From assembly GCA_016858145.1 (NCBI GenBank), contig JAEHOE010000012.1:1550001-1614000 (forward strand): 64,000 nt of DNA, read 5' to 3'. This document shows, piece after piece, positions 1-52,957 of this stretch (positions are counted from its first letter, which is position 1; every line of letters starts with the position of its first letter). The notes under the pieces are model-generated. The model did no database searches. It had not been told where the DNA came from and worked only from the letters and a program-made list of their open reading frames with translations. Source of the DNA: Edaphochlamys debaryana. Taxonomy: Eukaryota > Chlorophyta > Chlorophyceae > Chlamydomonadales. A program made the position numbers and the translations under genes.

Positions 1-694
1 ACTGCCCCCTCGCTCGATGATTGGGGCTGTGGGGGCGGGAGGGGAAGGGGAAGGCGGAGAGGGCGCAGGATGGCGTGAAGGGGCGAGCCCATTGTGCCTG
101 TTCAGGCCTGTTGTAGTTCCGGCTTGGGCATGAACAAAGGCTCACGAGGGCTCAGCGCACAGCTGCAGTCCAACGAGGGGAAGGTTGCAGGCGACTTGAG
201 TTGCGGTCGCACAGAGCCCACCGGCTGGTGAGGCGACCGAGGCCGAGGGACGGCATGTCGCCGATTGAAGTTGGCAGCTGAGCCTACCGTCTTCATTTAG
301 GAGCAGAGCCCGAGCCATCGTGCACGATAGCTATATAGTCGCTTACCACTTTCCTCGTGTCGACCCCACCAGTCAACCGCGAACATCCGAACCCCCTGAC
401 TTGCGAATGCCCTCCCGCGACCCATCGGCCACGTCGCGTCCATGGCCCCCCGCCCACGTCGCGTCGCATCCCCGTGCCCGCCGTCCCCACGCCCGCGCCT
501 CAGGCCAAGATATGCTGAAAGTAGTCAAGCGTTGAGACCATGTGGCTGCACTCGAGAAGTGCCGTCGCTCCGCCTCGGAACCACCCAGCTCGCCAGACCC
601 CCGCTGCTCCTCACCCCCTCTCCGTGCAGCCACCCGAGGCGTTCCGCGACGTGGAGCATGCAGAAGACCTCTAAAAGGCGAGAGGTTCGGGCGC
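1..694. other. Intergenic, no gene seen
   Basis: Only short open frames occur here, with no recognisable motif, splice-consistent exon chain or RNA gene. The tRNA terminator lies just inside its right edge. Confidence 0.4.
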
Positions 695-698
695 AAAA
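695..698 (-). terminator. Pol III T4 terminator of permuted tRNA gene
   Basis: On the minus strand a run of four T lies a few bases past the 3' trailer of the permuted tRNA-Ser gene. It is inside a GC-rich context, as expected for RNA polymerase III termination. Confidence 0.55.
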
Positions 699-712
699 CG
701 CCATCCCATGCA

Positions 713-814
713 TTCTAGTCAGTCCCCTTAACCACTCGGGCACGACTGCAGGGCTTGCGCCTGCTAGAATCGCAGTCGACAGGATTCGAACCTGTGCGGG
801 AGATCCCAACTGAT
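713..814 (-). tRNA. Circularly permuted tRNA-Ser(AGA) gene
   Basis: On the minus strand the 3' half of a serine tRNA (814-771) precedes its 5' half (749-713), with 21 nt (770-750) between them. Rejoined at the anticodon loop they give an 81-nt tRNA with every stem paired: acceptor GCAGTCG/CGACTGC plus discriminator G, D stem CCC/GGG around GAGTGGTTAA, anticodon stem ACTGA/TCAGT with loop CTAGAAA (anticodon AGA), the long variable arm GGGA/TCCC typical of Ser, and T arm ACAGG-TTCGAAT-CCTGT. The 5' leader CCATCCCA (829-822) is complementary to the trailer TGGGATGG (708-701). That would close the cut anticodon loop into a helix-bulge-helix-like substrate for tRNA splicing endonuclease. Known permuted tRNAs are ligated through a circular precursor; that step is inferred here. 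The tRNA would read UCU and, after A-to-I editing, UCC. Confidence 0.9.
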
Positions 815-853
815 TTCCGGCTGGGATGGACGTGAGAAAATGGTAATTCTGCC

Positions 854-860
854 TATATAT
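854..860 (-). promoter_or_regulatory. TATA element upstream of permuted tRNA gene
   Basis: The minus strand reads ATATATA about 25-30 nt upstream of the leader that pairs with the trailer. Plant and algal Pol III tRNA genes often have such a TATA-like box near -30. This places the likely transcript start close to 830. In the permuted gene the B box precedes the A box, so an upstream element may matter more than usual. Confidence 0.5.
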
Positions 861-861
861 G

Positions 862-1854
862 TATCGAACTAAACCGGCCAACGCACTATTTCATCGGCGG
901 TTCACGTGTCGGTCCCGTGCCGGGCCCGTACGCCCTCGTACGCCAACGCGTGCAGGGCCCGTACGGCCAACGCTCCGGCCAAGCAGGTCGGAGGGCTTGG
1001 AAAGGGCCGTGAACCCCTGCCCTCTGGCCCTCCGCCTGCACTCTCCCGGCGTCAGCGCCTCCTCTGTGGCCTCCTACGGCCCGCCCCTCCAAACCCCAGC
1101 CCGTTAGGGCCTGTCGCCTTGCCCCCGCCACCACGCCTCGAGTGTGCTGCCCCCAAGGCACCCGCAACTGCCGCAAGGCCGCCCACATCAGCACCTGCTG
1201 GAATGCCCGACTGCCGCCCAAGACGGCAGGCAACCGACCAGGTGCCTGCGTGTGGGCGCGCAGCATCTCTACCCGTCTACCGTAATCATCTCCCCATGGC
1301 GCCCAACTGAACATGCTGGCCGTGACCCGTGAGGCCCCCGGGGGCCGGGGCCCGGACGCTTCCCTCGGTGCCATCCTACAGCCCTCGCTCCACTTCTGTC
1401 ATAGCCCCAGACCGTAATCGCCACATCGCTGCACTGTGCTTCAAGCCCCGCTCCACACCCACACACCAGACCCGGCCAGACCCAGCTAGCTGCACGTTGC
1501 ATTGACACCCACACAACAAGTCGCCCATGCCCCTGCCGCCAGCCGCGGGCTGAAGCAGACGCCAGCCGCCGCCTGAGGTCACAACGGCCCACGACAGCCC
1601 CCACAGCCCACCTGTCACTACAGTCTACGCCCACATGGGCGCCTCCAAGCGCCTCCATGCCCCTTCCGAACTTGTCCAAGCCGTGCTCACCATTCCCTGG
1701 TCCTGCTCGCCACACGTGCTAAGAACCCGGCAAACGCCGCCCCTCTGCCCTTCAAGGCGCACACCAGCAAGCGCACCGCTGCTGCGCGCCACGCGCTGCT
1801 GCGGCGCTCGACGCTGCCCCACTAGCCTACCGGGAGGACTGGTCACCCCTCGTC
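862..1854. other. Intergenic, no gene seen
   Basis: GC-rich sequence between the tRNA and the 3' end of the MYND-finger gene. No exon chain, RNA gene or repeat could be supported. Part is presumably the 3' UTR of the minus-strand gene ending at 1855. Confidence 0.4.
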
Positions 1855-7741: not shown

Positions 7742-10700
7742 ATGGCCCCTCCAAAAGAGAAGAAGCGTCGCCAGCCAGCAGCTGATGCGGGCGACGCGCC
7801 GGCAGCGACAGCCGGCGACGCGCCGAAGCCTCGCGTTGTGCCGGCTGCCCCAGCGGATGAAGACTTCCCTCGTGGTGGTGACGATGGTCTCACGGCGCTG
7901 GAACGTCGCGAGTTGGCGGAGGCTGCCGCTCGCGATGTCGAGCACGAGCTCGCCGAAGGCAAGCAGCCTAAGGCGAAGAAGCCCAAGGTGGCGAAGCAGG
8001 TAAGCAGAGTCCGTCAAAAGGGGCTCTATTCCGGTATAACGGGTAGGGAGCCGCCGCCGAAAGCCGCCATGCCGAGCGCACCTGGCCTCAGGCGCGGTCT
8101 ATCCACGGCAGTTTCGCTCCAGGCGACCCTTGAGAGGCATGGGAGTGGCGTAGGCGGGGGCATGGGCACGGCCCGTCGTCCGCGACGCTTCAACGGGGAA
8201 CCAACCCCCAACGGCGCCTCCCGTTCCGGCTCCCCCCCCCTCCCCGCCGGCCGGCATGACACTCTAACCTGCCCTGCTTTCCCCCCCTCCTCTTCCTCCC
8301 AAGGCTGGCGACGCCGAGGACGCGTTCTTTGAGAAGCAGGCTGCCACGGTGGAGGGCAAGCTGGCCAAACACGTGGAGCTGCTGAGGGCCAAGGTGTGGA
8401 AGGCTAGCTAGACCCCTGGTGGCGTGCTGCTTCCGCACCAGGCTCAGTGGTTGCATCGGACGCGGCTGAACCCACAGCTTGAGGAGTTGCTCCCTGGCTG
8501 TACACCGCAGGGCACGCAGGCAACGTGCGCGGCTCTGTTGCTTGAGCACTGATGGACTGCCTCGGTGGCCCCACGGCCTTACTGCTGTACACCCAACTCT
8601 TCGCCCCGCCCTCACCGTCCTTCCCTGGCCCCCGTTTCTCCCCCCACAGAACCTGCAGGCCGGCACGCGGGTGTGGGGCATGGTGCTGGAGGTGACCCCG
8701 CGCGGGCTGGTGGTGTCCCTGCCGCACGGCCTGAGGGGGCACGTGGCGCCAGACCAGGTGGGGAGGGGCCGAGGGAGGCGGGGGGCGGGGCAGGCCTTAC
8801 CCTCGAGGCCTCGCGTGAGGCGACCTGGGGTCAGAACGCCCTAGACAGCAGCGCAGCGACTGTGGAGGCTGGAGTCCGCCTCGGCTTTCTCGCATCGCCG
8901 CAGCTACGACGCCCTCACGCCCCAGCCCGCCACCCGTCTGCCCCCTCTCATGACCCTCCCTCCCCTTCACTTCCCTGCCCCTCCCACGCCCCCTCCTCTC
9001 TCCCCAGGCCTCCGACGTGCTCAACCTGCTCTCGGCGGCCGCCTCGGGCGGCCCCGGCGCCAAGAAGGGCGCGGCGCTGCTGGCGGCTGCGGGCGGCTCC
9101 GTGCCGCCCCTCACCGACCTCTTCGCCGTGGGCCAGTTCGTGCGCTGCGTCGTCAGGGAGTCGGCCGACGGGGACGCCCCGGACGCGGCCCCGGCTGCGG
9201 CCGAGGGCAAGAAGGGCGGCAAGAAGCAGGGCGCGGAGGCGGCGCAGGGCGCGGCCCGCACGGCCAAGCACGTGGTGCTGTCGCTGCTGCTGACGGGGGT
9301 GCAGGGGCCGCTGGGCAAGGGGGCCCTGGCCGAGGGCCTGGCCCTGGGCGCGTGCGTGCGCAGCGTGGAGGACCACGGCTACACGCTCAGCTTCGGGCTC
9401 AAGGTGTGTGGGGGGGGGTTGTTTGGTGTGGGCGGGCGTAGGGCGAGGGCTTCCTTCGGGGACGGGGTTGAGCGGGAGCGCGCAGGCGGGGAGGCCTGGG
9501 GCCTTGCGTATGATGCGCCGTGTGTGGGCTGCGGGGCTGGCTACATGCGTGTGGCAAGTAAGAGCTGCGGAGTGTTGCTTGTGGGTCGGCTGACATGTTT
9601 GCACCCCCTACCTTGTGCCTGCGCCCGGCGCCGCCCCCCAGGGCGCCAGCGGCTTCCTGCCCAAGCGGGACCACGAGGCGCAGTTCGGGGAGGGGGTCAC
9701 GCTGCAGGTGAGCGGCAACAACACTGGAAGGGGTGGCTTGCTTGTGCGCCCTCTGCAGCGGCGTCTGCGTGCCCTAGTCCTGTGCAAAACCCCACGCACC
9801 TTCAACCTTGCCCACCCCTCCCGCTGCCCGTCCTCCTTCTCAGCCTCTCAGCCCTCTCACGACCCACCCCTCGCTTGTGTTCCCCTCCCCCCGTACCCTT
9901 GCCCTCCCCCCCCCCCCAGGTGGGTGGCCTGCTGGACGTGGTGGTCAAGTCCGTGGCCGACCCCCGCCACGTGGTGGTCACGTGCGCGCCCGGGGAGGTG
10001 GCGGCGGCGGTGTGGAAGGAGGGGCCGTACGGCGGCGGCGGGGGCCTGGACTCTCTCATGCCGGGGTCGCTGATCAACGTCAAGGTCCGCAAGGTAAGCA
10101 GAGAGGGGGGGGGGCTGGAGGAGGGAGGGGCGGGGGGCCTGGGTAGCAGCTGGGCGTGGAGAGGCGGTGTCGGGAACCCAGAGAGGACAGGGCTGCACAT
10201 GCAAAGTGGCTCCCCACCCCTGGCCTCCCCCCCCACCCCCCCACCCCCCCTCACCCTTCCCCTCTCCCCCCAGGTCCTTTCCAACGGCATCCTGGTCTCC
10301 TTCCTGACCTTCTTCCAAGGCACAATCGACCTCTACCACCTGCCCGCCGCCTCGCCCGCCGCGCCCACCGCCTCCTCCGCCCCCGGCGACTGGCGCAAGG
10401 CCTACCCCGAGGGCGCCAAGCTGCGCGCGCGGCTGCTCTACGTGGACCCCTCGGCCAAGCGCGCGGGCCTGTCGCTGCTGCCGCACCTGCTCTCCCTCAC
10501 GCTGCCCAGCCCCGTGCCCATGCTGGGGAGCGTGTTCAGCGATGCGCAGGTGCGTGCGTGCGGTGTGGGTGTGGGAAGGGGTGCAGGGTCGATGGGGGTG
10601 CACGGGTCAGGCGGCCTGCGGAGGTCCATGACGGCGCCATCGCCCCACCCTCCTGAGCATCCCCTCCCCATTCTCCCTAACCCCGTCTTCCCTCAACGCT

Positions 10701-13700
10701 ACCCTGCAATAACCCCCACCCACCCTCCCTCCGTCCTTTCATCTTCCCAGGTTGTCCGCATTGACCCCGCGGGCGGCCCCGGGCTGCTGCTGCGCCTGCC
10801 CGACTCGGGCGGCATGGGCGGCCCCGTGCCCGCCTACGCGCACGTGAGCAACGCCCTGGACGACAAGGTGGAGCGCGAGGCGGCGGCGGCGGAGCTGTCC
10901 AAGAAGTTCAAGGTGGGGGTTGGAAGCGGGGAAAGGGGGGGACAGAAGCTGAACGGGATGGCGACGGGGCTGGGTTGCAGGGTTACATAAGGACAGACGG
11001 GGTAAGGGAGAATGGGGAGGGGCTGCAGAGGAGGGAGTTTGGCTGTTTGCTTCTTGTTGGGAGGGCGGGGCGATGGCGTCGTCGTGGACCTCCGCAAGCC
11101 GCCTGACCCGTGCACCCCCGCTCCCTTCCCGGCGCCCCCCCCTCCCCGCAGCCCGGCACCCAGCTGCCCGCCCGCGTCATCGGCTACCGCCTCATGGACG
11201 GACTGGCGGCGGTGACGCTGCGGCCCTCGCAGGTGGGCAGGACAGGGCAGGCGGGGCTGGGGTCCGGGTCTGGGTCTGGGTCAGCCTGGGCCCTGAAGCG
11301 CGCTCACTTCCTTCTGCACTCGTTTACCCTGCGCACACCGCGCCGATCCGTGATGGCTGAACCCCACCCGCTCCCTCAACCCCCTCCCGCTCTTTCCCCT
11401 CCACCCACCCACCCCACCCACTAGGTCAACGCCAGCATCCTGTCCCTGTCCGACCTGTCCCCGGGCATGGTGGTGGCGGGGACCGTGGCGGCGGTGCCCG
11501 ACCGGGACGGCGAGGGACCACTGCTGGTGGCCCTGGCGGAGGGAGTGCGGGGGCTGGTGCCGCCGATGCACGCCGCGGAGCTGAGCGGCGCGGGCGAGGG
11601 CGCGCAGGTGAGGGGTATTGAGGCAGTAGGAAGGGCTTGCAGGGTATGCAGGCTCGGGGTATCGCCTTTGGGCCTGGCACCAGCCGTGCCTCCAAATTCT
11701 GGGATGCAACTGCCACGGCCCCACGGTAGCGATCACGCCCCCGCCATGTCCTCCCCGTAACCTTCTCCCCCCCCTTCTGTCCCCACCTGCTCCCCCGCCC
11801 CCTCCTCAGCGCAAGCTGGGCAAGGTGAAGGTCAAGGTGGGGCAGAAGGTGGAGGCGCGCGTGCTGGAGGTGGACCCCGGCAGCCGGCGCCTGCTGCTGA
11901 GCCTGCGCAAGGGCCTGCTGGCGGGCAAGGCGCAGCCGCTGGTGTCAGCCACGCAGGCGTCGCCGGGGGCGCGCTTCAGCGGCGTCGTCACGGGTGAGGC
12001 CGGTGCCATGGGTTGCGGCAGGGGAACCGCACGAGACGGCGTGCCGTGTGTTGGCGATGTGCCTGCGGTGGCGTGCGAGGGCTCCCTGCCCATCACCGCT
12101 CATTCCTTGCCACACCCTGCCTCCGCCTCCTCCACCCCCCAACCCCAGGCTTCCACGACCGCCTGGGCGTGTTCGTGGGCTTCTTCGGGGACCTCAGCGG
12201 CGCCGCTCCGCACACGGAGCTGGGGCTGCAGCCGGGGCAGACTGCGCAGGACGTGTTCGCAGTCGGGCAGGTGGTCAAGGCCACCATCCTGTCGGTCCGC
12301 AACGGCCGCCTGCGCCTGTCGCTGGCGCCCAAGGCCGCCGCCGAGGCGGCGGCCGCCGCCGCCGCCACCGCAACCCCGGCCGCCGCCGCCGCCGCCAGCC
12401 CTGCCGCCGCCGCCGGCGGCGCGGACCCGCTGGGCGGGCTGCAGCCGGGCGACGCGGCGGAGGCGACGGTGCTGGAGCTGCCGTCGGCGACGGCGCCGCA
12501 CTACGTGGTGCGGCTCGAGGCGGCGGGGGCGGCGGCTGGCGCTGGCGGCGTGGTGCGCGGGCGGCTGGAGCCGGCGCACCTGTCTGACCACCCGGCGGTG
12601 GTGGATGCGCTCAAGGAGGCGGTGCGGGTCGGCACCAAGCTGGGTGAGCGCAGGGCCTGGAGTAGGCTATGGCCTTGGGGGCGGCGGGCCGCAAAGGCTC
12701 ATGGTATAGCAAGGAGCATGCGGGCGTCCCTACCTGTTCTCTAGCCCTGGTGCCCATTGCCTGCCCCCTTCCCCTCCCCTCCATTCCAGGCCGCGTGGTT
12801 GTCCTGGACCGGCTGGAGGGCCAGCGCTGCCTGCGCGTCTCCCGCAAGCCCTGCCTGCTGGCCGCCGCGGCCGCGCGCTCTCTGCCCGCCTCGTTCGCGG
12901 AGGTGCGCGAGGGCGCGCTGCTGCCGGGCTTCGTGGCCTCGGTGACGGCGGACGCGGTGTACGTGCGCTTCCTGGCGGGGCTCACGGGTGAGGGTGGGAG
13001 GGGCTTGGGTGGGTGGGGCAGGGGCTGCGGGAGGGGTAGCAGGAACAGGGGCGGGGCTCATGGGGGAGGGCAGGGGACGGTGGGTCAGAGGGCGGGGCCG
13101 TGGGGGAGGGGTAGCACGGGCAGGGGCTGGGCGCATGGGGCAGTGCAGGGGGCGGGGGCAGGGCGCACAGGGAAGGGTTATACACCAACCATCGGCTGTA
13201 CCCCAGCTGCTTCCCGCACACCGCACCCTTAACCCTACCCCCACTCCCGAACCCGACCCACGCCCAGGCCGCGCCGGGCTGCCCCAGCTGGCCGACGTGT
13301 TCGTTTCGGACCCCCACACGCGCTTCACGGAGGGGCAGTCGGTGCGGGCGCAGGTGGGGTCGGTGGACGCGGCCAAGCAGCGGTTCGCGCTGTCGCTGCG
13401 GCCCTCAGCCACGGCCTCCAGCGACGGGGCCTACCTGCTGGACCTGTTCAGGTGGGGGCGGGGGGGGGGGGCGGGGCAGGGGGGGGGGCAGGGGCTAGGG
13501 CTGTGAGGAGCGGAGGGTCTGTCTGGACAGGGCAGTAGGGATGGGTTGGGAGGGCAGGCGGGGTTTGGGCTGCCAGGCCAGGCGACATAAAGGCAAGGAA
13601 CGAGCGGCCCCGTCGTTGCCTGTCTGTCTGTCTGGGAGGGCTGTGTGTCACTGACCTTTCGAATTCTACCGCTCTGTCCACAGGGAGATCCAGGCCCTGT

Positions 13701-16700
13701 CTGCGATCCGCGCTGAGGCGGAGGGCGCTGCCGGGGCGGCGGCCGAGGACCCCGCCAAGCTGTTCCCGCTGGGCTCCCTGGCGGGGGCCAAGGTGCACGA
13801 GGTCAAGGAGTACGGCATCGTGGTCGACATGGACAACCACCCGGTACGGCACCTGTACGGCACCTTTGCAGCTCTGCCCGCGCTTCTGCCCCTGCCCCTG
13901 CGCCGCTTCCACCCATCCTCGGGTTCCGCTCCCTGCCTCTCCGCCCCGTCCCGAACCCCTTTCCCGCCATCCTCGTTACCCTCATTCCCCTCCACCCCTT
14001 GCCCTCTCTCCGCAGGACGTGGTGGGGCTGGTGCCCTCGAGCCACACGGGCCCCGCGGGCGCCGCCCCCGCCCCGGGCAAGCACGTCAAGGGCGTGGTCC
14101 TGGACGTGGTGCCGCACCAGGTGGGGAGGGTGGGGGGGGGGCTGGAGAGGGAGGGGGGCTGCCTGAACGAGGGTGCGCAGAGGGCCACGGGTGCGGTTGC
14201 TGCAGGCTGAGGAGCCGCTAGCAGTTGTGGGCTCCTCTGCTGCCTGGCCGTCTGCTCGCGAGCGGACTAGCGCGCCCTGGTTCAATAGCAGCCCCCTTAC
14301 CTGACCTGGCCTAATACCCCTTCACCTTCCCGCCCCCGCTCCCCCCCCCTCGGTAGGGCCTGGTGGAGCTGTCCCTCAACCCCACCCTGGTGGGGGCCGC
14401 CAAGAAGGAGGCGGAGGCGAAGGCAGCGGCCAAGAAGCTCAAGGCAAGTGCGCCTGGTCCCCTTCATACCCGCATCCCTGTGCCTCCAGAAGCCATGCTT
14501 TCCCCTTCATCCCCCGCCCCGCTGCTCGACCACCCACACCCACACCTGTGCCCCGTCACCAACCCCCCCCCCCCCGCCCTTCCCCCACCGCATCCCCCGC
14601 AGGCCGGCACGAGCGTGGAGGCGGTGGTGGAGGGCGTGCGCCCCGGGGAGTACCTCATCCTCTCGCTGCCCTCGCACGCCTCGCTCCTCGCCTACGCCGC
14701 CGTCACGGACTACAACACGCCCCGCCCCGACCTGGTGCCCCGCACCTTCACCCCCGGCCAGCACGTGACCGCCACCATCGTGGCCACCCCCCCCGAGGCC
14801 CCCGCGGGCCGCATCGTCTGCCACGTGCCCCTCACGCGGGCGGCGGCGGACGGTGCGGCGGGGGCCAAGGGCGCCAAGGCGGCGACGCCAGGCAAGGCCG
14901 CGCCAGCGCCCAAGGTCGAGCTCAAGCCGGGCCAGGTGGTTGAGGCGGTTGTTACCGGAATCCAACCGCATCAGCTGGACGTGTCGGTCGGCGGGCGCGT
15001 GGCCGGCCGCATCCACGTGACGGAGGTGATCGACGTCGACGTCAAGGCGCTGGTGGCAGCGGCGGCGGCAGCCGCCTCCGCCGCGGTTGGCGACTCCGCC
15101 GCCGCCGCCGATGCCGCCGCGCCGCCGCCCAAGAAGAAGGCGCGCAAGAGCGAGGCCGCGGCGGTGGCGGCCAACGGCTCGGCGGCGGCGGAGGCCAACG
15201 GGTCAACCGCCGCCGCCGCGCCCGGCCGCAGCCCGCTGGACGGCTTCCGGCTGCAGCAGGTGGTGACGGCGGTGGTGCTGGGGCGACTGCAGGGCGGCGA
15301 CGGGCACAAGCGCGGCGTCATCGACCTCTCCCTGCGCCCCGGCCGCCTGGCCATCGCCAAGAAGGTGTGGGGGGGAGGGGGGGGTTATGCAGCAGGCTGG
15401 GAAGGACTGCGTTCACCTCACTGCTTCTGGGCCAAGTCCAGGCCATGCACCGTGCGTGTCTTCCCGCCCAGCCCCTACACCCATGGGCTGAGGCGGAGTT
15501 ATTTTAGCGCACCACAGCGAGGGCTCCCCGGGCGGTCGCACGAAGCGCGCCGGTGCCAACCCAGGCACCGGCGCATCCGGCGCGGCCTGCCTACATCACC
15601 AACACTACCCGCATGCCCTCTAACCCAGGCATCTCATGTTCACGCTGTCTCAAGTTATCTGACTCTGAATCTGCCGTCACGCTTGATGATGCATTCCGCC
15701 GCAGTCCTGACCCCCCCTGCTCTCCCATCCTCCCTCCCTGCCTCCCTCAGAACGAGCCGCAGGTGCCCCCAGTGCAGCTGTCGGACCTGGTGCCCGGCCA
15801 GCAGGTGAAGACCTGGGGTGGACATAAGATGCTCTGGGGCTGCAGCGTTCACTGCAGCCGCCGCCTCCCTGAGGGCCTTCGTCCACGCCTCGTCCAACCT
15901 CGTGCACCCTCTCCCGTCAACCTCGCCCCCCTCACCCTCACCCCTACTTCCCTCGCCCCTCTCAGGTGGTGGGCTACGTGCTGGAGGTGGCGGAGGACGC
16001 CCTGTGGATCGCCGCCGGCCCCGCCGTGCGCGGCCGCGTGGCGGCGCTGGACGCCTCCCTCTGCCCCGACACGCTCGCTCGCCTCTCCGCCGCCTTCCCG
16101 CCCGGCGCGCCCGTCGTGGCCCGCGTGCTGGGCGTCAACGCCAAGAAACACACGCTCGACCTCTCCCTCCTCGACCCCTGCTCCGGCCACACCAACGGCT
16201 CGGTTGCGGCCGGCTCGGGCGCCGCGGCCGACGCCGGCAAGGCCCCGATCCCGGCCGAGGGGGCCTTAGTCATGGGCCGGATCGTGGCGGTGTCGGGGGC
16301 GGGCGTGCGGGTCGCGATCGGGGCCAAGCGCTTCGGCCGCGTGGCGCTGACGGACATCCATGACACGTGGGTGCCGGACGCGCTGGCGGGGCTGACGGAA
16401 GGCGCCTACGTGCGGGCCCGTGTGGTCGGGAAGGACGGCGAGACGGCGCTGCTGTCGCTGCGGCCGTCGCGCGGCGGCGCGGTTGCGGGCGCGGCGGCGC
16501 GCGCGGGCGCGGCGGAGGGCGCCAAGGGCAAGGCTGGGGCCAAGGCCGCGGCGGCGGCGGCCGCTGGGGCCGGGGTGGAGGGCTCCCCGGCGGCCGAGGT
16601 GCTGGAGAAGGGCGCGCTCACGGAGGGCGGTGTGGTGGCGGGCTACGTCAAGCGCTGCGACGCCAAGGGCCTGTTCGTGGCCCTGGACCGGTGAGCTGGG

Positions 16701-28450: not shown

Positions 28451-31146
28451 ATGCGAGCCACGATGGCTGCCCTACTGCTCAACGTCCGCGTTTGTGGCTC
28501 CAGCCAATTACTTAGCCGTTCTACTGCCAGTAGTAGCACGCCTCTCGTCCCTCGCGCGGCAGTTGCGTCTCTGGCGCGGACGTGGCCGCCGCTCAGCGAC
28601 CTCGCGCGCTGCAACTCGTCAGCGGAGACCTGCAGCACCTCCTATGCTAGCAGCGAGCAGTCGTGGCTCATGCTTCGGGGGCCTTCGGGCATCAGCGGTC
28701 GGCACCTCTCGCCCCGCCGCTCCCTCAGCACGCGCACGGTGCCCCGCGCCACGGGCTCCGAAGCCGCCAGCGCTCCCGCGGAGAAGACCGATGAACCAGT
28801 GCCAAAGGCCACAAAGGGGCCCAAGCAGCGGATGAGGTGTGTTGGGGTTGTGTCGAGTAGGCACCAAGGGGTTCAGGCGGATTCGGGTCTGGTGCACATC
28901 AGAGGGCCACAAGCCGACACGGGGCTGGCCCCAGCGCCGCCGCCGCTGAGCCGGGCAGACACCAGGGCCTGCGGAAAGGCAGGTGCCACCGACGTAGCCT
29001 CACATATACAGCAAGGTACCTTGCTTACCCTTGCTCCCTGACCCGGGCAGGCTGGACGAGTACTGCATGACTCTGGCCCCTCAGGTGGGGAGTCGACGAC
29101 GCTGGGGGGTGGGGGGCGGAGCCGGCCAGTCCATTCAGCCTCCAAGACATGCCATGACTTCCCTTCCCTTCATCTCCTATCTCCACGTGCAGTTCAGCCG
29201 AAACGTCATCCAGTCCTTCATCCTGCAGGGCAAGGTGGGCAGCGGCGGGCAACGCCGCTCGGCCGGGCTTGCACCTTAAGCTGAGAACGCTCTGGCCCCG
29301 GCCTAGCCCGCACCTGCATCATGACCCGGGCTGATGCCGCCCGCTCCTGACCGTGTACCCCGTCCCTTGCCCCAGGTCCGCGTGGGGGACAAGGTGGTTA
29401 CTAAGGCTGGTACGCCAGTGGTGGTGGGCCCGGGCGGGCCTGTGGTGGTCATCGACAGCGAGCAGCCGCGCTACGTGTGCCGCGCGGGTCTCAAGCTGGA
29501 GAAGGCGCTGGAGCACTGGGGCATAGACGTCAGGTGGGTGGTGCTGACTGGCAGCTCAAGCGGCGCTGCAAGAGCGCCAGGCGACGCGGACGCAAGCAGC
29601 GGAGCGGTGGTGCTGCTGGACGTGGGGCAGGTCATGAGAGACACCTAACGGGCGTGCAGCACATGGGGCGGGGACTGTAAGCTGTGACAGCGTGCCACGC
29701 CACCTCCTGCGTCGCCCTGGGCATGACTCTCGCCCCGCTTGTGTGTCGCCTCTGTGCTCTGTCCCCGCAGCGGGCTGACGGTGCTGGACTCGGGGCAATC
29801 CACTGGCGGCTTCACGGACTGCCTCCTGCAGCACGGGGCGGCAAAGGTGGGGGGGGACCAGGGGGAGGGGGCTGGGCGGCCACAGCCGACAGGGCGGTCC
29901 AGTGCGAACGCGCACGGCAGACCCTCACGCCTCGCTCCAGGCTGAGGCGTTCAACCAGTGTTGTGCCCGGGCCTTACCTGGATCCAGGTGTACGGCATCG
30001 ATGTGGGTCATGGCCAGCTGGCCGACAAGATCCGCCACGACGAGCGGGTGGTGGTGATGGAGAAGTTCAACCTGCGCCACCTGCAGCCCCAGCACCTGCC
30101 CGAGCTGGTGAGCTTGCCCCCCCTTCCATGACACTCCTTTCGGCGCCTGTAACGGCTGCGCGCCGTCGTCACTGCCGCTGCTCACGACCTTCACGCCTCT
30201 AGCACACCCGCATACCAGCTGCTTCGCCCCTCTCCCTAAGCGCGCCGCATCACAGGCTTGGTGCGAAGAGCCCCGCTCGTGCCCCCCCCACTCCCCCGTC
30301 TTCCCTTATCCCGACCCCACGTGACCTCAACCTCGGACCTGCAGGTGGACATGGCCACGCTGGACCTGTCCTTCATCAGCCTGCTGCTGGTCATCCGCGG
30401 CGTCACCTCGGTGCTCAAGCCGCAGGGCCGCCTGGTGGCGCTCATCAAGCCGCAGTTCGAGGCGGGGCGCAGGCAGGTCGGGCCGGGAGGCCTGGTCAAG
30501 GACCCCAAGGTGAGCAAGGCAGGAAGAAGGGGTCAGCGATGCGATTGGGTCAGGGATGGATGCCGTGGCGTGCACCACACAGCTGTGGCAGGCAGCGTGC
30601 AGGGCCTGTGGGCAGAGCACCCCCGCAAGCACTGTGCCCCAGACGCTCAGCCGACGCTAGCCTCTCTGCCCGCGTTGCGCCAGGGACCAACGCTACTTCG
30701 TTACTTCTTTCCTGCACACGCGCCCCCAACGAAATGCGACGCCATGACTCCGCGGCACTACGCCCCGTTGTCTATAATAACCCCAGGTGCACGCCGAGGT
30801 CATTGAGCGCATCACGACCGGCATCGCGGCGCACGGCTACGAGCTGCTGGGCGTGACGGAGAGCCCCATCAAGGGCGACCGCTCGGGGAACACCGAGTTC
30901 CTGGCGCACTTCCTGCGGCGGCCGGAGCTGGCCAAGGAGGCCGTGGCGGGCGCTGCCGTGCAGGCGGCGGAGGCGGAGCAGGCGGAGGGCAGCGAGGCGG
31001 CGGGGGAGGCGCCAGGGGATGGTGCGACTGGGGCGGGGGCGCAGGGGCAAGGGGAGGAGGGGAGAGGACGGGGGAGCGGGGCGGAGGCAGGGGAAGGAGG
31101 GAAGGGGGGCCAGCGGGTGCGCAAGGGCCGTCGTGGGAGGCTGTGA
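28451..31146 (+). CDS. TlyA-family S4/FtsJ rRNA 2'-O-methyltransferase, organelle-targeted
   Basis: Eight exons: 28451-28837, 29050-29083, 29192-29235, 29376-29533, 29771-29847, 29988-30108, 30345-30509 and 30787-31146. ATG 28451 or 28463 opens a Ser/Arg/Ala-rich presequence of about 110 residues, low in acid, typical of plastid or mitochondrial import. An S4 RNA-binding fold spans exons 2-4 ([30 protein letters not shown]). An FtsJ-like SAM-dependent domain follows: [13 protein letters not shown], motif [31 protein letters not shown], then [14 protein letters not shown], a catalytic-region KPQFEAG and the terminal GNTEFLAHF. Bacterial TlyA enzymes methylate 16S/23S rRNA, so the likely substrate is organellar rRNA. 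The last about 70 residues are a low-complexity Gly/Ala/Glu then basic tail not usual for the family. Confidence 0.85.
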
Positions 31147-48938: not shown

Positions 48939-51900
48939 CCCCAAAACGCGCGCAAACACCGCGGCGTCCTGAGGCCACCCCTTCGCAAGAGGTTTGGCCC
49001 TGATGCCCCCGTTTCCATCCTAGAATCCCCTTTGCCGGCCGGTTTGGTGAGCGAGCCCGCGGCGCCCGCAGTCGGCGTGCAGTGTCGGCGGCTGTCCCCG
49101 TCGCAAAAGGCTCTTGACCTCTGTGCTATCGCGGCTTTCCAGTAACCCTCCACTGCATGCAGTAGCAATTCACACATCGCGACGGTTCATTGGCGGTCGA
49201 TGATGATGATGATTGTTACACAGCTTCATGGCTGTGAGGTCCAAACGAGCCAAAAGGCTTCATAGACCTCAGCAACAGCAGCTATCATTTGCAGCTATCA
49301 TCAATAATGTTCTTGGTCCAACCATTTACGCTAAGTCTGCTAGCCTCAAAAAGCGCGCGTGTCTCATCTCGGCAATTACCCGCGCCAAACCCCTCTGGTC
49401 CGGTCCTGCCATAACCTCCATCATAGTGCTTCCTGGCGTGACTCCTAAGGCCCACAAGCCTTGTCTAGCTTCAGCTAAAGCAGGGCACTCCAGCAAGAAA
49501 TGCCGCTCATCTTCTACTGCCCCGTGGTCTCCGCAGGCTCTGCACCACCGCTCATGCCTCGGCCGTCCCCCTGGCCGATTCACCTCCAACGCAAACGTGC
49601 ATAGGCGAAACCTTATAAGCAGCCGATGCTGCCAACGCGGGATATAACACTTCCTGTGCTTAGCTGGCCCCATCCAATGCATCCAACGGCACATCTTCAC
49701 CCCTGGGGGAGTGCCATCCGTCTGAAACAACTCAGGGCGTGTCTGTAACCTGTCGCTGCACCAATCGTCATCAAATCTCAGCCTCAGTTGCTCAAGAATC
49801 CTGTCTGCGGGAACCATGGATCGGGTGATCCGTTCAACCCGTTCTTCAATGCCTAGCGCGCTGGGCTTTCCTTAAAGTGGGTCAAAGCGCATCAGGCGCA
49901 AGAAACGAAGCATTTGGGCCCCCCATCCCCCCGCCCTACCCCTGAGTGCCAGTCGAATCTCCTCCCTGAACACACAGACGTAAACCTCCGGCGCCTTAAC
50001 CAAGCGGTTCCAAAATCCCAAGACCAGATGTGCCCAGAATACATGCAAGGGCCACTGTCCCATCTCCCTATACAAAACCCGGTCAGGCGACAGAGTAATA
50101 CCTGCTACCCGACGTAGGAAAGTGCGTTGTACCTGCACCGCTGGATCCTTCAGGGCCAGCTCAAAGTAGCCTGACCTGCCTGCCTGCGCCTCCGGTTGTT
50201 GCCCGTATCCCCCCTCTAAAACCTTCATCAAGACCCCCGGCGCCCACACTTCCGCCCCGTAAGACAAGATGGCTCGCACCTGGGTGTCAAAGCAACCCGT
50301 AGCAATATGGGGCGTTAGCAAACCTTGCCGTTCCAGCTTACTCAGAAGCGCATGCATAGCCCGTCTCCCACAATCGTTCAACTCCTCCCTACAGGACTCA
50401 AAAGGCGAGTCGGGTCCAAAGTGGATCCCCAGATACCGCGCCCTTCGCGTCCATGGCACAGCCTTCTCAGTCGCAACCCCTTGTTCCAGCCGCGTCATCT
50501 TCACGCACCCCGCCTCCCCCCGTTCGTACTGGGCTGCGCGAGCCGTTCCGTCGGGGTGAAAGAAAAGGCATTCACACTTGTCCACATTAGCGCTCATCCC
50601 AAACGCCGCACACCATTCATCCAAGCATCGCAGCACGTGATCCACTCGCCTCTGGCCATGGGCAAACAGCGCTAAATCATCCGCGTACAGCTTCAACGGC
50701 ACCCGTCTTCCATCTGCCTTAGGGCACTCATCCCCAAACGCCTGCACCATGCTACTTCTGTCCTTCGCCTCCACATAATCGGCATACGATTCACCGTAAA
50801 AACCATACAATGCGGGGCTGCTCGGGTCACCTTGCTTGACTCCCTGTGTTGACAGAAACGGCGGCCCCATCTCCCCATTCCCCTTAACCCGCAGCTCCAC
50901 CCTATTGTAGCAAGCCTTAAGTGCGGCAAGCATCTCCCCGTGCACCCCCCTCTCTTCCAACCTTTGCCAAAGCAACTCCCTAGGTACCCTGTCGAAGGCT
51001 TTCTCGAAATCAATGAGTAACACAAATAGCGGCTTGCGGTCCGTGGTGCCAGCTGGACCAGGCCGTTGCCGATCCGTCAGATGCCTCAAAACAAACAGAC
51101 AGTGGATTGTGCTTCGCCCTTCAATGAACCCTCCCTGCAGGGGGTTACGCGCCGGCTTGCCATGTTCCTGACAGACTTTGGCCCACCTTGCTAGCCTCCT
51201 CATGACAAACGCATACAACTTGGCCAGGGCACCCCCTACTGCCAAACCCCGATAGTTGCCTTCCGTGTGCGCATCTCCTTTCTTGTGGATGGCCGTGAGA
51301 GAGGAGCCTTCCCATTGCGGTGGATAGTCCCCTGTCCTCCTTATATGCTCAAACAACGTTGTAAGATGTGGTGCAAGCACCCACTCCGTCACAGTCCGCC
51401 CTTGCTCTGTCTCCCTGCTCCGTGTGGCGTTCTTATAGCACTCCGCAGGCACCGGGTCCAGCCCCCCTGACTTGTTGTTCGCAAGCCTCTTTAGCGCCTC
51501 CAGCACCTCACCCCTCTCTAGCGGCCCGTTCATTGCCGCCGCCAGCTCCACCCGCTTATCTCGGTCTCCACCCGCTTGTGCCCATTCTGCACCCGTTACG
51601 CAAGCTTTGCCATTGATTGCGCAGAAAATCCGGTTCACCATGTCCACAGAGAAACCATTAGCGTGGCCATTCAACAGCCCGTCAAACCATGTAGTGAGCC
51701 GCGCCACCGGAATAGGGCATGTGGTCTGTTGCTTGCCATTCAATAACTGCCAGAGCGCCCTTGGGTCTGCCACACAATCTTTCAGCAACGCCTCAAAGGT
51801 CCGTATCCTATACGCCTCAGTTGCTTCCCGCCTAGTCCGCTGGTACCTGTTGCGCAGTCGCCTGAACTCCGCGCAGGCTTCTGCATCCTCCAGTAGCCCT

Positions 51901-52694
51901 CCTCTCCTCATGGCCGCTTTATGAGCCAGCATGGCGTCCCTAGTTGAGGCGCACTCAGTCGTCCACCACGGAGCATCCCCGTCACCGTTACAGCGACGGT
52001 TCCGACCCCGCGGCCTCCCCATCACCTGCTCCATAGCGCCCAGCAGCGCCTTGGTAATACCCTCCACCGCTTGCGAACTGCTGGTGCCGTTACCCAGCCC
52101 GATCACCGCGTCCTTAACCGCCCGTTCCACTCCAGAGTCCTCCGTCTCAAACAGCCTCGTCCAGTCCCGTGCCTTACGAGGTATCCACTTCACCTTACGA
52201 CCATTGCGTGCCCTGGGTACAGACGCTAGGACCAGCTCCACCGGGCTGTGGTCACTGATCCAGCTTCCCATCTTCTCTCCATCCGTTGCCGCTTGCAGCC
52301 CTAGCACCCGCAGGGCCCTGGCCCACGGATACAGGCCCGGTGAAGCAACAAACAGATCAATGGCGCTAGACGCCTCCCCAAACGCTTGATGAAACGTGCA
52401 CGCTCCCTCCCTATCCCCCGCAACCCTGCCGTTCAGTACTACCAGTCCTTTCGCCTTGCAAAGCTCCACGAGTGCTCGACCAAACACATTGGATTCGGGG
52501 TCCTCATTGCGCCTGCATGGAATGGCAGCCGTGCCCACCACACCGTCTCCCACCCCAGCCGCGGCTTCAAGTGCGGCAACTCCATCCCCAGCCGCGATCT
52601 CCTGCAACTCTGCGACTCGAGCATTCATATCCCCCATGAGTAAAACCTCATCCCCAGCCCGCCTATGACGCAGCATAGCCTTGATGCGGCCCGT

Positions 52695-52705
52695 TAGACG
52701 TTTAG
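52695..52705. repeat. Target-site duplication, left copy
   Basis: TAGACGTTTAG on the plus strand, identical to 52958-52968. It flanks the insertion within LINE ORF2. Confidence 0.85.
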
Positions 52706-52957
52706 GAATGACGCGTTACAGGGTTGCGGCCAGCGGGCAGACGAGCTGCCGGCCCCGCATAAGGGGGAGAGAGTCAACTTCCCCCGACCCCAGGCGTTCC
52801 CTAAGGGATCGTCCACTACCGAGTCTCCACCTACTCCAACCAAGCCAAAGAATTGAGACACCCGGCCCACGCGGGGCACGGGGAAAGAATCAGCAGGCCG
52901 AAGCCGAGTCCAGGGCCAGAGCCCCGCCATGTCCACAGCACGTCCGCACCACCTAAT
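52706..52957 (-). mobile_element. 252-bp non-autonomous insertion inside the LINE
   Basis: Bounded by perfect 11-bp direct repeats. If the insert and one repeat are left out, LINE codons run on in frame (VAKRL then TGRIKAML), so this is a clean insertion. It lacks terminal inverted repeats, a TG...CA LTR end, a poly(A) or microsatellite tail, and a coding frame. The 11-bp duplication would suit a LINE-mobilised SINE-like element or an unusual DNA element. Class unknown. Confidence 0.8.

What the first reader, a model, noticed from the sequence alone, without database searches (positions are those of the whole stretch)
695..860. Circularly permuted tRNA-Ser(AGA) gene in a green alga
Seen: on the minus strand a complete 3' half precedes a complete 5' half by 21 nt. 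Joined at the anticodon loop they give a serine tRNA with fully paired acceptor, D, anticodon, variable and T stems. Leader (829-822) and trailer (708-701) are perfectly complementary over 8 nt, a TATA element lies about 30 nt upstream and a T4 follows. Known: permuted tRNA genes were described in the red alga Cyanidioschyzon and in some prasinophytes, and mature through a circular intermediate. Inferred: this one is functional, as no stem is broken.
Basis: partly seen in the sequence, partly recalled or inferred. Interest (0 to 1): 0.93.

Follow-up and report, generated by a model that had tools for sequence, protein, structure and literature searches.

The report
Permuted serine tRNA genes, eight copies
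In this green alga the gene for one serine tRNA is written with its second half before its first half, in eight copies and with no ordinary copy found, so the cell probably depends on cutting and rejoining this scrambled RNA to read common serine codons.

Summary
On the minus strand a 44-nt 3' half (814-771) lies 21 nt before a 37-nt 5' half (749-713). Joined at 37/38 they read as tRNA-Ser(AGA); unjoined, neither ARAGORN nor Rfam sees a tRNA in the window. The genome (141.9 Mb; by its statistics most likely Edaphochlamys debaryana, inferred) holds eight such genes: two in a palindrome here, five on contig C68, one on C65. Their halves are identical (81 of 81 nt) although C12, C68 and C65 flanks do not align; a T4 follows all eight. 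Leader and trailer can pair with different letters, well at C12 and most C68 copies, weakly at C65. No ordinary Ser(AGA) gene was found. So these genes are probably the sole source of that tRNA. Permuted tRNA genes, Ser(AGA) included, are a known kind. New, as far as the papers seen show, are the likely chlorophycean host and a multi-copy family without an ordinary copy. Expression and the circular intermediate are untested.

The parts
771..814 (-). 3' half of tRNA-Ser(AGA), positions 38-73 (44 nt)
   Evidence: identical in 8 of 8 genomic copies
750..770 (-). intervening sequence (21 nt) between acceptor ends; holds TTCTAGCAGGC, present in 8 of 8 copies
713..749 (-). 5' half of tRNA-Ser(AGA), positions 1-37 (37 nt)
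   Evidence: identical in 8 of 8 copies
822..829 (-). leader strand of the junction helix (8 nt)
701..708 (-). trailer strand of the junction helix (8 nt, perfect complement of 829-822)
695..698 (-). T4, likely RNA polymerase III terminator
   Evidence: T4 or longer begins 14-22 nt after the 5' half in 8 of 8 copies; 346 of 18,276 sampled 35-mers of the window hold T4
854..860 (-). ATATATA, possible TATA element of this copy
   Evidence: TATA-like in 2 of 8 permuted copies and 3 of 57 ordinary tRNA loci looked at
1..1486 (.). right arm of a 3.08-kb palindrome (C12:1548412-1551486) whose left arm carries the second identical permuted gene, outside the window at C12:1549010-1549190 (+)
   Evidence: 99.35% over 3079 columns

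Best explanation
A functional, nuclear, circularly permuted tRNA-Ser(AGA) gene, one of eight that together are probably the cell's only source of this tRNA. Inferred path: RNA polymerase III transcribes leader - 3' half - spacer - 5' half - trailer and stops at the T4. The two halves fold together, with the anticodon stem and the leader/trailer helix making the splice-site motif. tRNA-splicing endonuclease cuts after position 37 and before position 38; ligase joins the halves into a circle whose acceptor ends are linked by the spacer. RNase P and tRNase Z cut out the spacer, CCA is added, A34 becomes inosine, and the tRNA reads UCU and UCC. Shown here: gene anatomy, copy number, lack of a detected ordinary gene, sequence constraint. 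Inferred: every processing step.
For: Joined halves are called tRNA-Ser(aga), with 7-bp acceptor, 3-bp D, 5-bp anticodon and 5-bp T stems. Eight copies with six distinct leader/trailer contexts; the 81 mature positions are identical in all eight, while 700-nt flanks of the C12, C68 and C65 groups do not align with each other apart from one 16-nt match. Between different C68 loci the similarity stops 28-107 nt upstream and 28-31 nt downstream, just past the T4, so roughly the predicted transcript is what is kept. A query of the joined sequence found only Ser(CGA) genes and two truncated copies, one Ser(TGA) and these permuted genes, 17 of 17 candidates scored; a Ser(TGA)+Ser(GCT) query added eight Ser(GCT)-like matches and nothing else new, 16 of 16 scored. 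Differences from Ser(CGA), 6 of 81: two swapped base pairs (3:78 and 27:43 in linear numbering), the wobble base 34, and a T-stem C:G in place of U:G; none breaks a stem. T4 follows in 8 of 8. The junction at 37/38 is the usual eukaryotic intron site, and G at -3 faces C32 in 8 of 8 (that this pair matters is recalled). UCC and UCU codons are in use, 20+5 and 11+1 in two RRP5 exons. Permuted Ser(AGA), type II, is on record from M. pusilla and from nucleomorphs.
Against: No RNA data. Unconstrained folding prefers another structure by 1.8-6.5 kcal/mol in 6 of 6 distinct precursors. Leader/trailer pairing is only modestly better than shuffled trailers: 15, 2, 23, 7, 5 and 76 of 500 shuffles do as well, weakest at C65, and 3 of 4 distinct C68 leaders pair better with the C12 trailer than its own leader does. 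A and B boxes are in reverse order, and 6 of 8 copies lack a TATA element, so the promoter is unexplained. The genome searches score only the best candidates, two of the eight Ser(GCT)-like matches (99% and 91%) were not read for their anticodon, and the assembly may lack sequence.
Confidence: 0.9

Rival explanations
1. Silent rearranged copies (tRNA pseudogenes or a tRNA-derived repeat) spread by duplication; the working tRNA-Ser(AGA) comes from an ordinary gene missed by the searches or missing from the assembly.
For: Six of the copies sit in inverted duplications, as repeats do; only the best candidates are scored and the assembly is in 502 contigs.
Against: 81 of 81 positions identical in 8 copies with unalignable flanks between groups; compensatory stem changes against Ser(CGA); T4 at 8 of 8; no ordinary AGA gene among the 17 and the 16 candidates scored. 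Two truncated Ser(CGA)-like copies on C214, one with anticodon TGA, show that ordinary copies do decay visibly here.
Confidence: 0.06
2. The halves are transcribed but used as something else, for instance as tRNA fragments or a stable circular RNA, rather than as a translating tRNA.
For: A spacer block TTCTAGCAGGC, part of which is complementary to the anticodon loop, is present in 8 of 8 copies, which mature tRNA function does not need.
Against: The joined tRNA is intact in every stem and no other gene for this anticodon was found.
Confidence: 0.03
3. Assembly artefact: missed hairpin adapters or a misjoin made the palindrome and the swapped order.
For: The C12 copies lie in a near-perfect palindrome (99.35%).
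Against: The same order appears in six distinct contexts on three contigs, including single copies on C65 and at C68:616 kb with no inverted partner among the matches; the arms of one C68 pair differ by 5%. The swap lies within about 110 nt, unlike a palindrome artefact.
Confidence: 0.01

Closest known systems
Permuted tRNA-Ser(AGA) of Micromonas pusilla and of the Bigelowiella natans nucleomorph (Soma 2014, PMC3978253, Table 1; section 4 part 1 read)
   Same: Same isoacceptor, junction at 37/38 (type II), no intron, 3' half first.
   Different: Spacer 64 and 5 nt there, 21-28 nt here. One table entry each there; eight genes here. Those are a prasinophyte and a nucleomorph; here most likely a chlorophycean nucleus.
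Circularly permuted tRNA genes of Cyanidioschyzon merolae (Soma 2007; known here only through the 2014 review)
   Same: Gene order, T-stretch, upstream TATA at the window copy, CCA not encoded.
   Different: C. merolae junctions lie at several positions and most genes have a TATA-like element; here only 37/38, and 2 of 8 copies have TATA. In the table only its Gly(CCC) has two genes.
Permuted tRNA genes of Auxenochlorella UTEX 250-A (Plant Cell 2025, PMC12636532; passages read, supplementary figure not seen)
   Same: Permuted tRNA genes in a green alga outside the prasinophytes.
   Different: That alga is in another class (Trebouxiophyceae; recalled). Which tRNAs are permuted there was not seen.
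Chlamydomonas reinhardtii tRNA genes
   Same: Probably the same order of algae as the window's organism; tandem intron-containing tRNA genes are reported.
   Different: Said to contain no permuted tRNA genes (Maruyama 2010, as cited in Soma 2014; the original was not read).

Membership tests
circularly permuted tRNA gene (type II, 37/38) | 3' half upstream of 5' half with a short spacer between the acceptor ends | tested here: met
   44-nt and 37-nt halves, spacer 21-28 nt, 8 of 8 copies
circularly permuted tRNA gene (type II, 37/38) | joined halves make a normal tRNA with U8, G18G19, U33 and U54U55C56 | tested here: met
   ARAGORN tRNA-Ser(aga) on the joined sequence with CCA added; the bases named are read from that sequence
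circularly permuted tRNA gene (type II, 37/38) | junction sequences can form the splice-site (bulge-helix-bulge type) motif | tested here: inconclusive
   8 bp at C12; 9 Watson-Crick bp at 3 of 5 C68 copies, one more with a G-U and one with a mismatch; 8 of 9 with a mismatch at C65; G-3 opposite C32 in 8 of 8. Unconstrained folding prefers other structures in 6 of 6
circularly permuted tRNA gene (type II, 37/38) | T-stretch downstream of the 5' half and none between the halves | tested here: met
   first T4 begins 14-22 nt after the 5' half in 8 of 8; none in spacer or halves
circularly permuted tRNA gene (type II, 37/38) | upstream TATA-like element (typical of C. merolae, not required) | tested here: not met
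   2 of 8 copies only; the window's own copy has it
circularly permuted tRNA gene (type II, 37/38) | CCA not encoded | tested here: met
   spacers begin ATT, ATC or AAT
circularly permuted tRNA gene (type II, 37/38) | circular RNA intermediate and charged mature tRNA | not testable with these tools
   no RNA data

The most novel reading that the evidence does not exclude
A whole isoacceptor family in a chlorophycean nucleus has gone over to the permuted form and multiplied as such: eight genes, six of them in palindromic pairs kept alike by gene conversion, with no ordinary gene left. The conserved spacer block TTCTAGCAGGC, whose TTCTAG can pair with the anticodon loop CTAGAA, would be a working part of the precursor (a folding switch or a guard against premature use) or of a promoter adapted to reversed A and B boxes.
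Probability: 0.25. Interest if true: 0.75.

Novelty: new member of a known kind. Interest (0 to 1): 0.6.

Why it matters
The permuted tRNA genes listed in the 2014 review come from small genomes (C. merolae, prasinophytes, nucleomorphs, one archaeon). Here a 142-Mb genome seems to rely on them for an essential tRNA and carries eight copies, so neither genome compaction nor a single frozen accident explains them well. With a relative reported to lack permuted genes (C. reinhardtii), the origin of permutation could be dated and tested among related algae. ARAGORN and Rfam miss the gene in this window, so standard annotation would probably report Ser(AGA) as missing.

Tried and rejected
Tried without use: two exact-pattern scans of IMG/VR for relatives, 0 matches each; RNAalifold on two precursors only, which aligned the leaders poorly; a second Rfam tRNA scan of the genome, a repeat, which again scored 63 of 1469 candidates, so no full tRNA inventory of the genome was made; an RRP5 exon as protein query, 1 unnamed hit. 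With introns allowed, ARAGORN made two false calls across permuted loci, a tRNA-Gly at L011 and a tRNA-Ala at L016.

Considered and set aside: an A-box-like site across the border of leader and 3' half scored high in 6 of 6 contexts, but the matrix came from nine non-serine genes, gave the true serine A box a poor score, and the site lies mostly in the mature tRNA, so it says little. Other permuted tRNAs: an iMet+Cys+Asn query gave 18 matches (11 to the iMet part, 5 longer and 2 of 17 nt to the Cys part, none to Asn) and a Leu(AAG) query gave 15. None is in swapped order; the genes behind them were not read, except that one Cys-part match is the known Thr(TGT), and other tRNAs were not asked about. 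The count of 57 ordinary loci leaves out one false tRNA-Ala call and genes too close to the end of a fetched locus. An earlier count gave nine Ser(GCT) matches; the recount is eight.

Full report
What is there. On the minus strand of the window, leader 829-822, 3' half 814-771, spacer 770-750, 5' half 749-713, trailer 708-701 and T4 698-695 follow in that order. ARAGORN and Rfam at gathering threshold report nothing in the window. Joined after position 37 (with CCA and filler ends typed on), the halves are called tRNA-Ser(aga) by ARAGORN, with 7-bp acceptor, 3-bp D, 5-bp anticodon and 5-bp T stems. A simple scan for swapped tRNA halves finds this one place on both strands of the window and none in 200 block-shuffled windows.

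The family. A search of the window's own genome (G000, 141,892,200 bases, 502 contigs) with window 690-870 gave 24 matches from 16 candidates, all scored. Eight candidates are permuted copies: C12 x2, C68 x5, C65 x1. The others fall on ordinary tRNA-Ser(CGA) genes or their truncated copies on C214, C169 and C23. The 81 mature positions are identical in all 8 copies. In 700-nt flanks the members of each inverted pair are alike over 293-700 nt; different C68 loci share 28-107 nt upstream and 28-31 nt downstream; between C12, C68 and C65 there is no alignment apart from one 16-nt match. Identical mature sequence inside unrelated flanks is what selection or gene conversion on a working gene gives; drift of dead copies would not.

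Is there an ordinary gene? The joined sequence as query gave 25 matches from 17 candidates, all scored: six full ordinary Ser(CGA), two truncated copies, one Ser(TGA), and the eight permuted genes as two halves each; one truncated copy reads TGA. A Ser(TGA)+Ser(GCT) query gave 16 matches from 16 candidates, all scored: eight to Ser(GCT) (six at 100%, one at 99%, one at 91%), the Ser(TGA), and seven on the Ser(CGA) set. One of the eight Ser(GCT) matches was read by ARAGORN (L060); the 99% and 91% ones were not read. No ordinary Ser(AGA) was found. The tool warns that counts are lower bounds, and the assembly may be incomplete, so 'no ordinary copy' is strong but not final. UCC and UCU codons are in use in the neighbouring RRP5 exons, so the tRNA is needed, given that eukaryotes read both with Ser(IGA) (recalled).

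Constraint. Against Ser(CGA) the permuted Ser(AGA) differs at 6 of 81 positions: 3 and 78 (a base-pair swap in the acceptor stem), 27 and 43 (a swap in the anticodon stem), 34 (the wobble base) and 58 (T-stem C:G in place of U:G). No difference breaks a stem.

Precursor. The 3' half starts with A38 after GAA (C12) or GAC (C68, C65), and the 5' half ends with A37 before TGC in all copies. This is the usual eukaryotic intron site. G at -3 faces C32 in all 8; that this pair matters for the eukaryotic enzyme is recalled, not tested. Leader and trailer can pair: 8 bp at C12; 9 Watson-Crick bp at 3 of 5 C68 copies, one more with a G-U and one with a mismatch; 8 of 9 with a mismatch at C65. Tests against this: with trailers shuffled 500 times, 15, 2, 23, 7, 5 and 76 shuffles reach the observed duplex energy for the six distinct contexts. 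In the cross-pairing table each leader group does best with its own trailer group, but the C12 trailer pairs better with 3 of 4 distinct C68 leaders than with its own. Unconstrained folding prefers other structures by 1.8-6.5 kcal/mol in 6 of 6. So the junction motif is plausible and not proven by structure alone.

Transcription. T4 or longer begins 14-22 nt after the 5' half in 8 of 8 copies (6 of 6 distinct contexts); 346 of 18,276 sampled 35-mers of the window hold T4. Of 57 ordinary tRNA loci with unique upstream sequence, 25 have T4 within 40 nt. A TATA-like element is present within 120 nt upstream only at the C12 pair; ordinary loci have it in 3 of 57 (within 80 nt) and the background is 272 of 9,834 80-mers. 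So the TATA is not the family's promoter. How polymerase III starts with A and B boxes in reverse order remains open; the 2014 review discusses the same problem for other algae.

Spacer. All eight spacers hold TTCTAGCAGGC followed by a short loop and GCCT or GCCCT, even at C65, where little else outside the tRNA is shared (GTCCAGAC before the 3' half as in two C68 copies, and TGC after the 5' half). TTCTAG is complementary to CTAGAA of the anticodon loop; TTCTAG occurs in 28 of 25,590 sampled 24-mers of the window. It is unexplained: a processing or promoter element, or a relic of the founding rearrangement.

Arrangement. The C12 genes converge inside a 3.08-kb palindrome (99.35%) whose centre lies about 60 bases left of the window, so only one gene is visible in it. 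On C68 two divergent pairs lie in inverted repeats with arms of 1.40 kb (99.86%) and 0.85 kb (94.7%). This suggests spread by inverted duplication and upkeep by gene conversion (inference).

Organism. GC 67.2% in the window, 141.89 Mb, longest contig seen 4,216,157 bp, and best named hits of a reverse-transcriptase ORF in Pleodorina, Volvox and Astrephomene. Craig 2021 (PMC8226300; passages read) gives Edaphochlamys debaryana 142.14 Mb, GC 67.1%, longest contig 4.2 Mb, 527 contigs; the held genome has 502. Likely, not proven.

Known or new. Soma 2014 (PMC3978253; section 4 part 1 and passages read) lists 34 permuted tRNA genes, among them Ser(AGA) of M. pusilla and of the B. natans nucleomorph, both type II, and says that C. 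reinhardtii has none. PMC4494063 (passages read) adds Ser(AGA) and Ser(CGA) of the A. amoebiformis nucleomorph. PMC12633428 and its journal version PMC12636532 (passages read) report permuted tRNA genes in Auxenochlorella. Searches of the held open papers for permuted tRNA, alone or with green alga, Chlamydomonas, Volvocales/Chlorophyceae/Volvox or Chlamydomonadales, and for tRNA with Edaphochlamys showed, by title and start of abstract, none that reports this family. Two lists were cut (40 of 45, 20 of 151), and subscription papers, Maruyama 2010 included, and database entries were not seen. So: a new member of a known kind, notable for its copy number, its apparent sole-source status and its likely place in a large chlorophycean genome. 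Whether it descends from an old green-algal permuted Ser(AGA) or arose anew cannot be told here.

Noticed in passing
window 1-1486 (L054:1912-4986): Right arm of a nearly perfect 3.08-kb palindrome without spacer; two more inverted pairs of permuted genes lie on C68.
   Followed up: partly
window 750-770 and L011, L016, L055, L056: Spacer block TTCTAGCAGGC present in 8 of 8 permuted genes; TTCTAG is complementary to the anticodon loop.
   Followed up: partly
G000:C214:28973-29037 and 29788-29852: Two truncated ordinary Ser(CGA)-like copies, one of them with anticodon TGA, that lose the tRNA sequence in the T arm.
   Followed up: no
L057, L058, L059, L060: Dense tandem tRNA arrays (such as Lys-Gly-Ala-Gln); 32 of 57 ordinary tRNA loci looked at lack a T4 within 40 nt, which suggests joint transcripts. 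A gene that ARAGORN names tRNA-SeC(tca) with a 25-nt intron is probably a misnamed tRNA-Leu (own reading).
   Followed up: no
window 8954-10990 and 14357-15808 (+): Exons of an RRP5-like rRNA-processing protein (Pfam PF23459, PF24682).
   Followed up: no
window 49872-52715 (-): Reverse transcriptase ORF, probably of a LINE-like element; its best named hits are volvocine algal proteins.
   Followed up: partly
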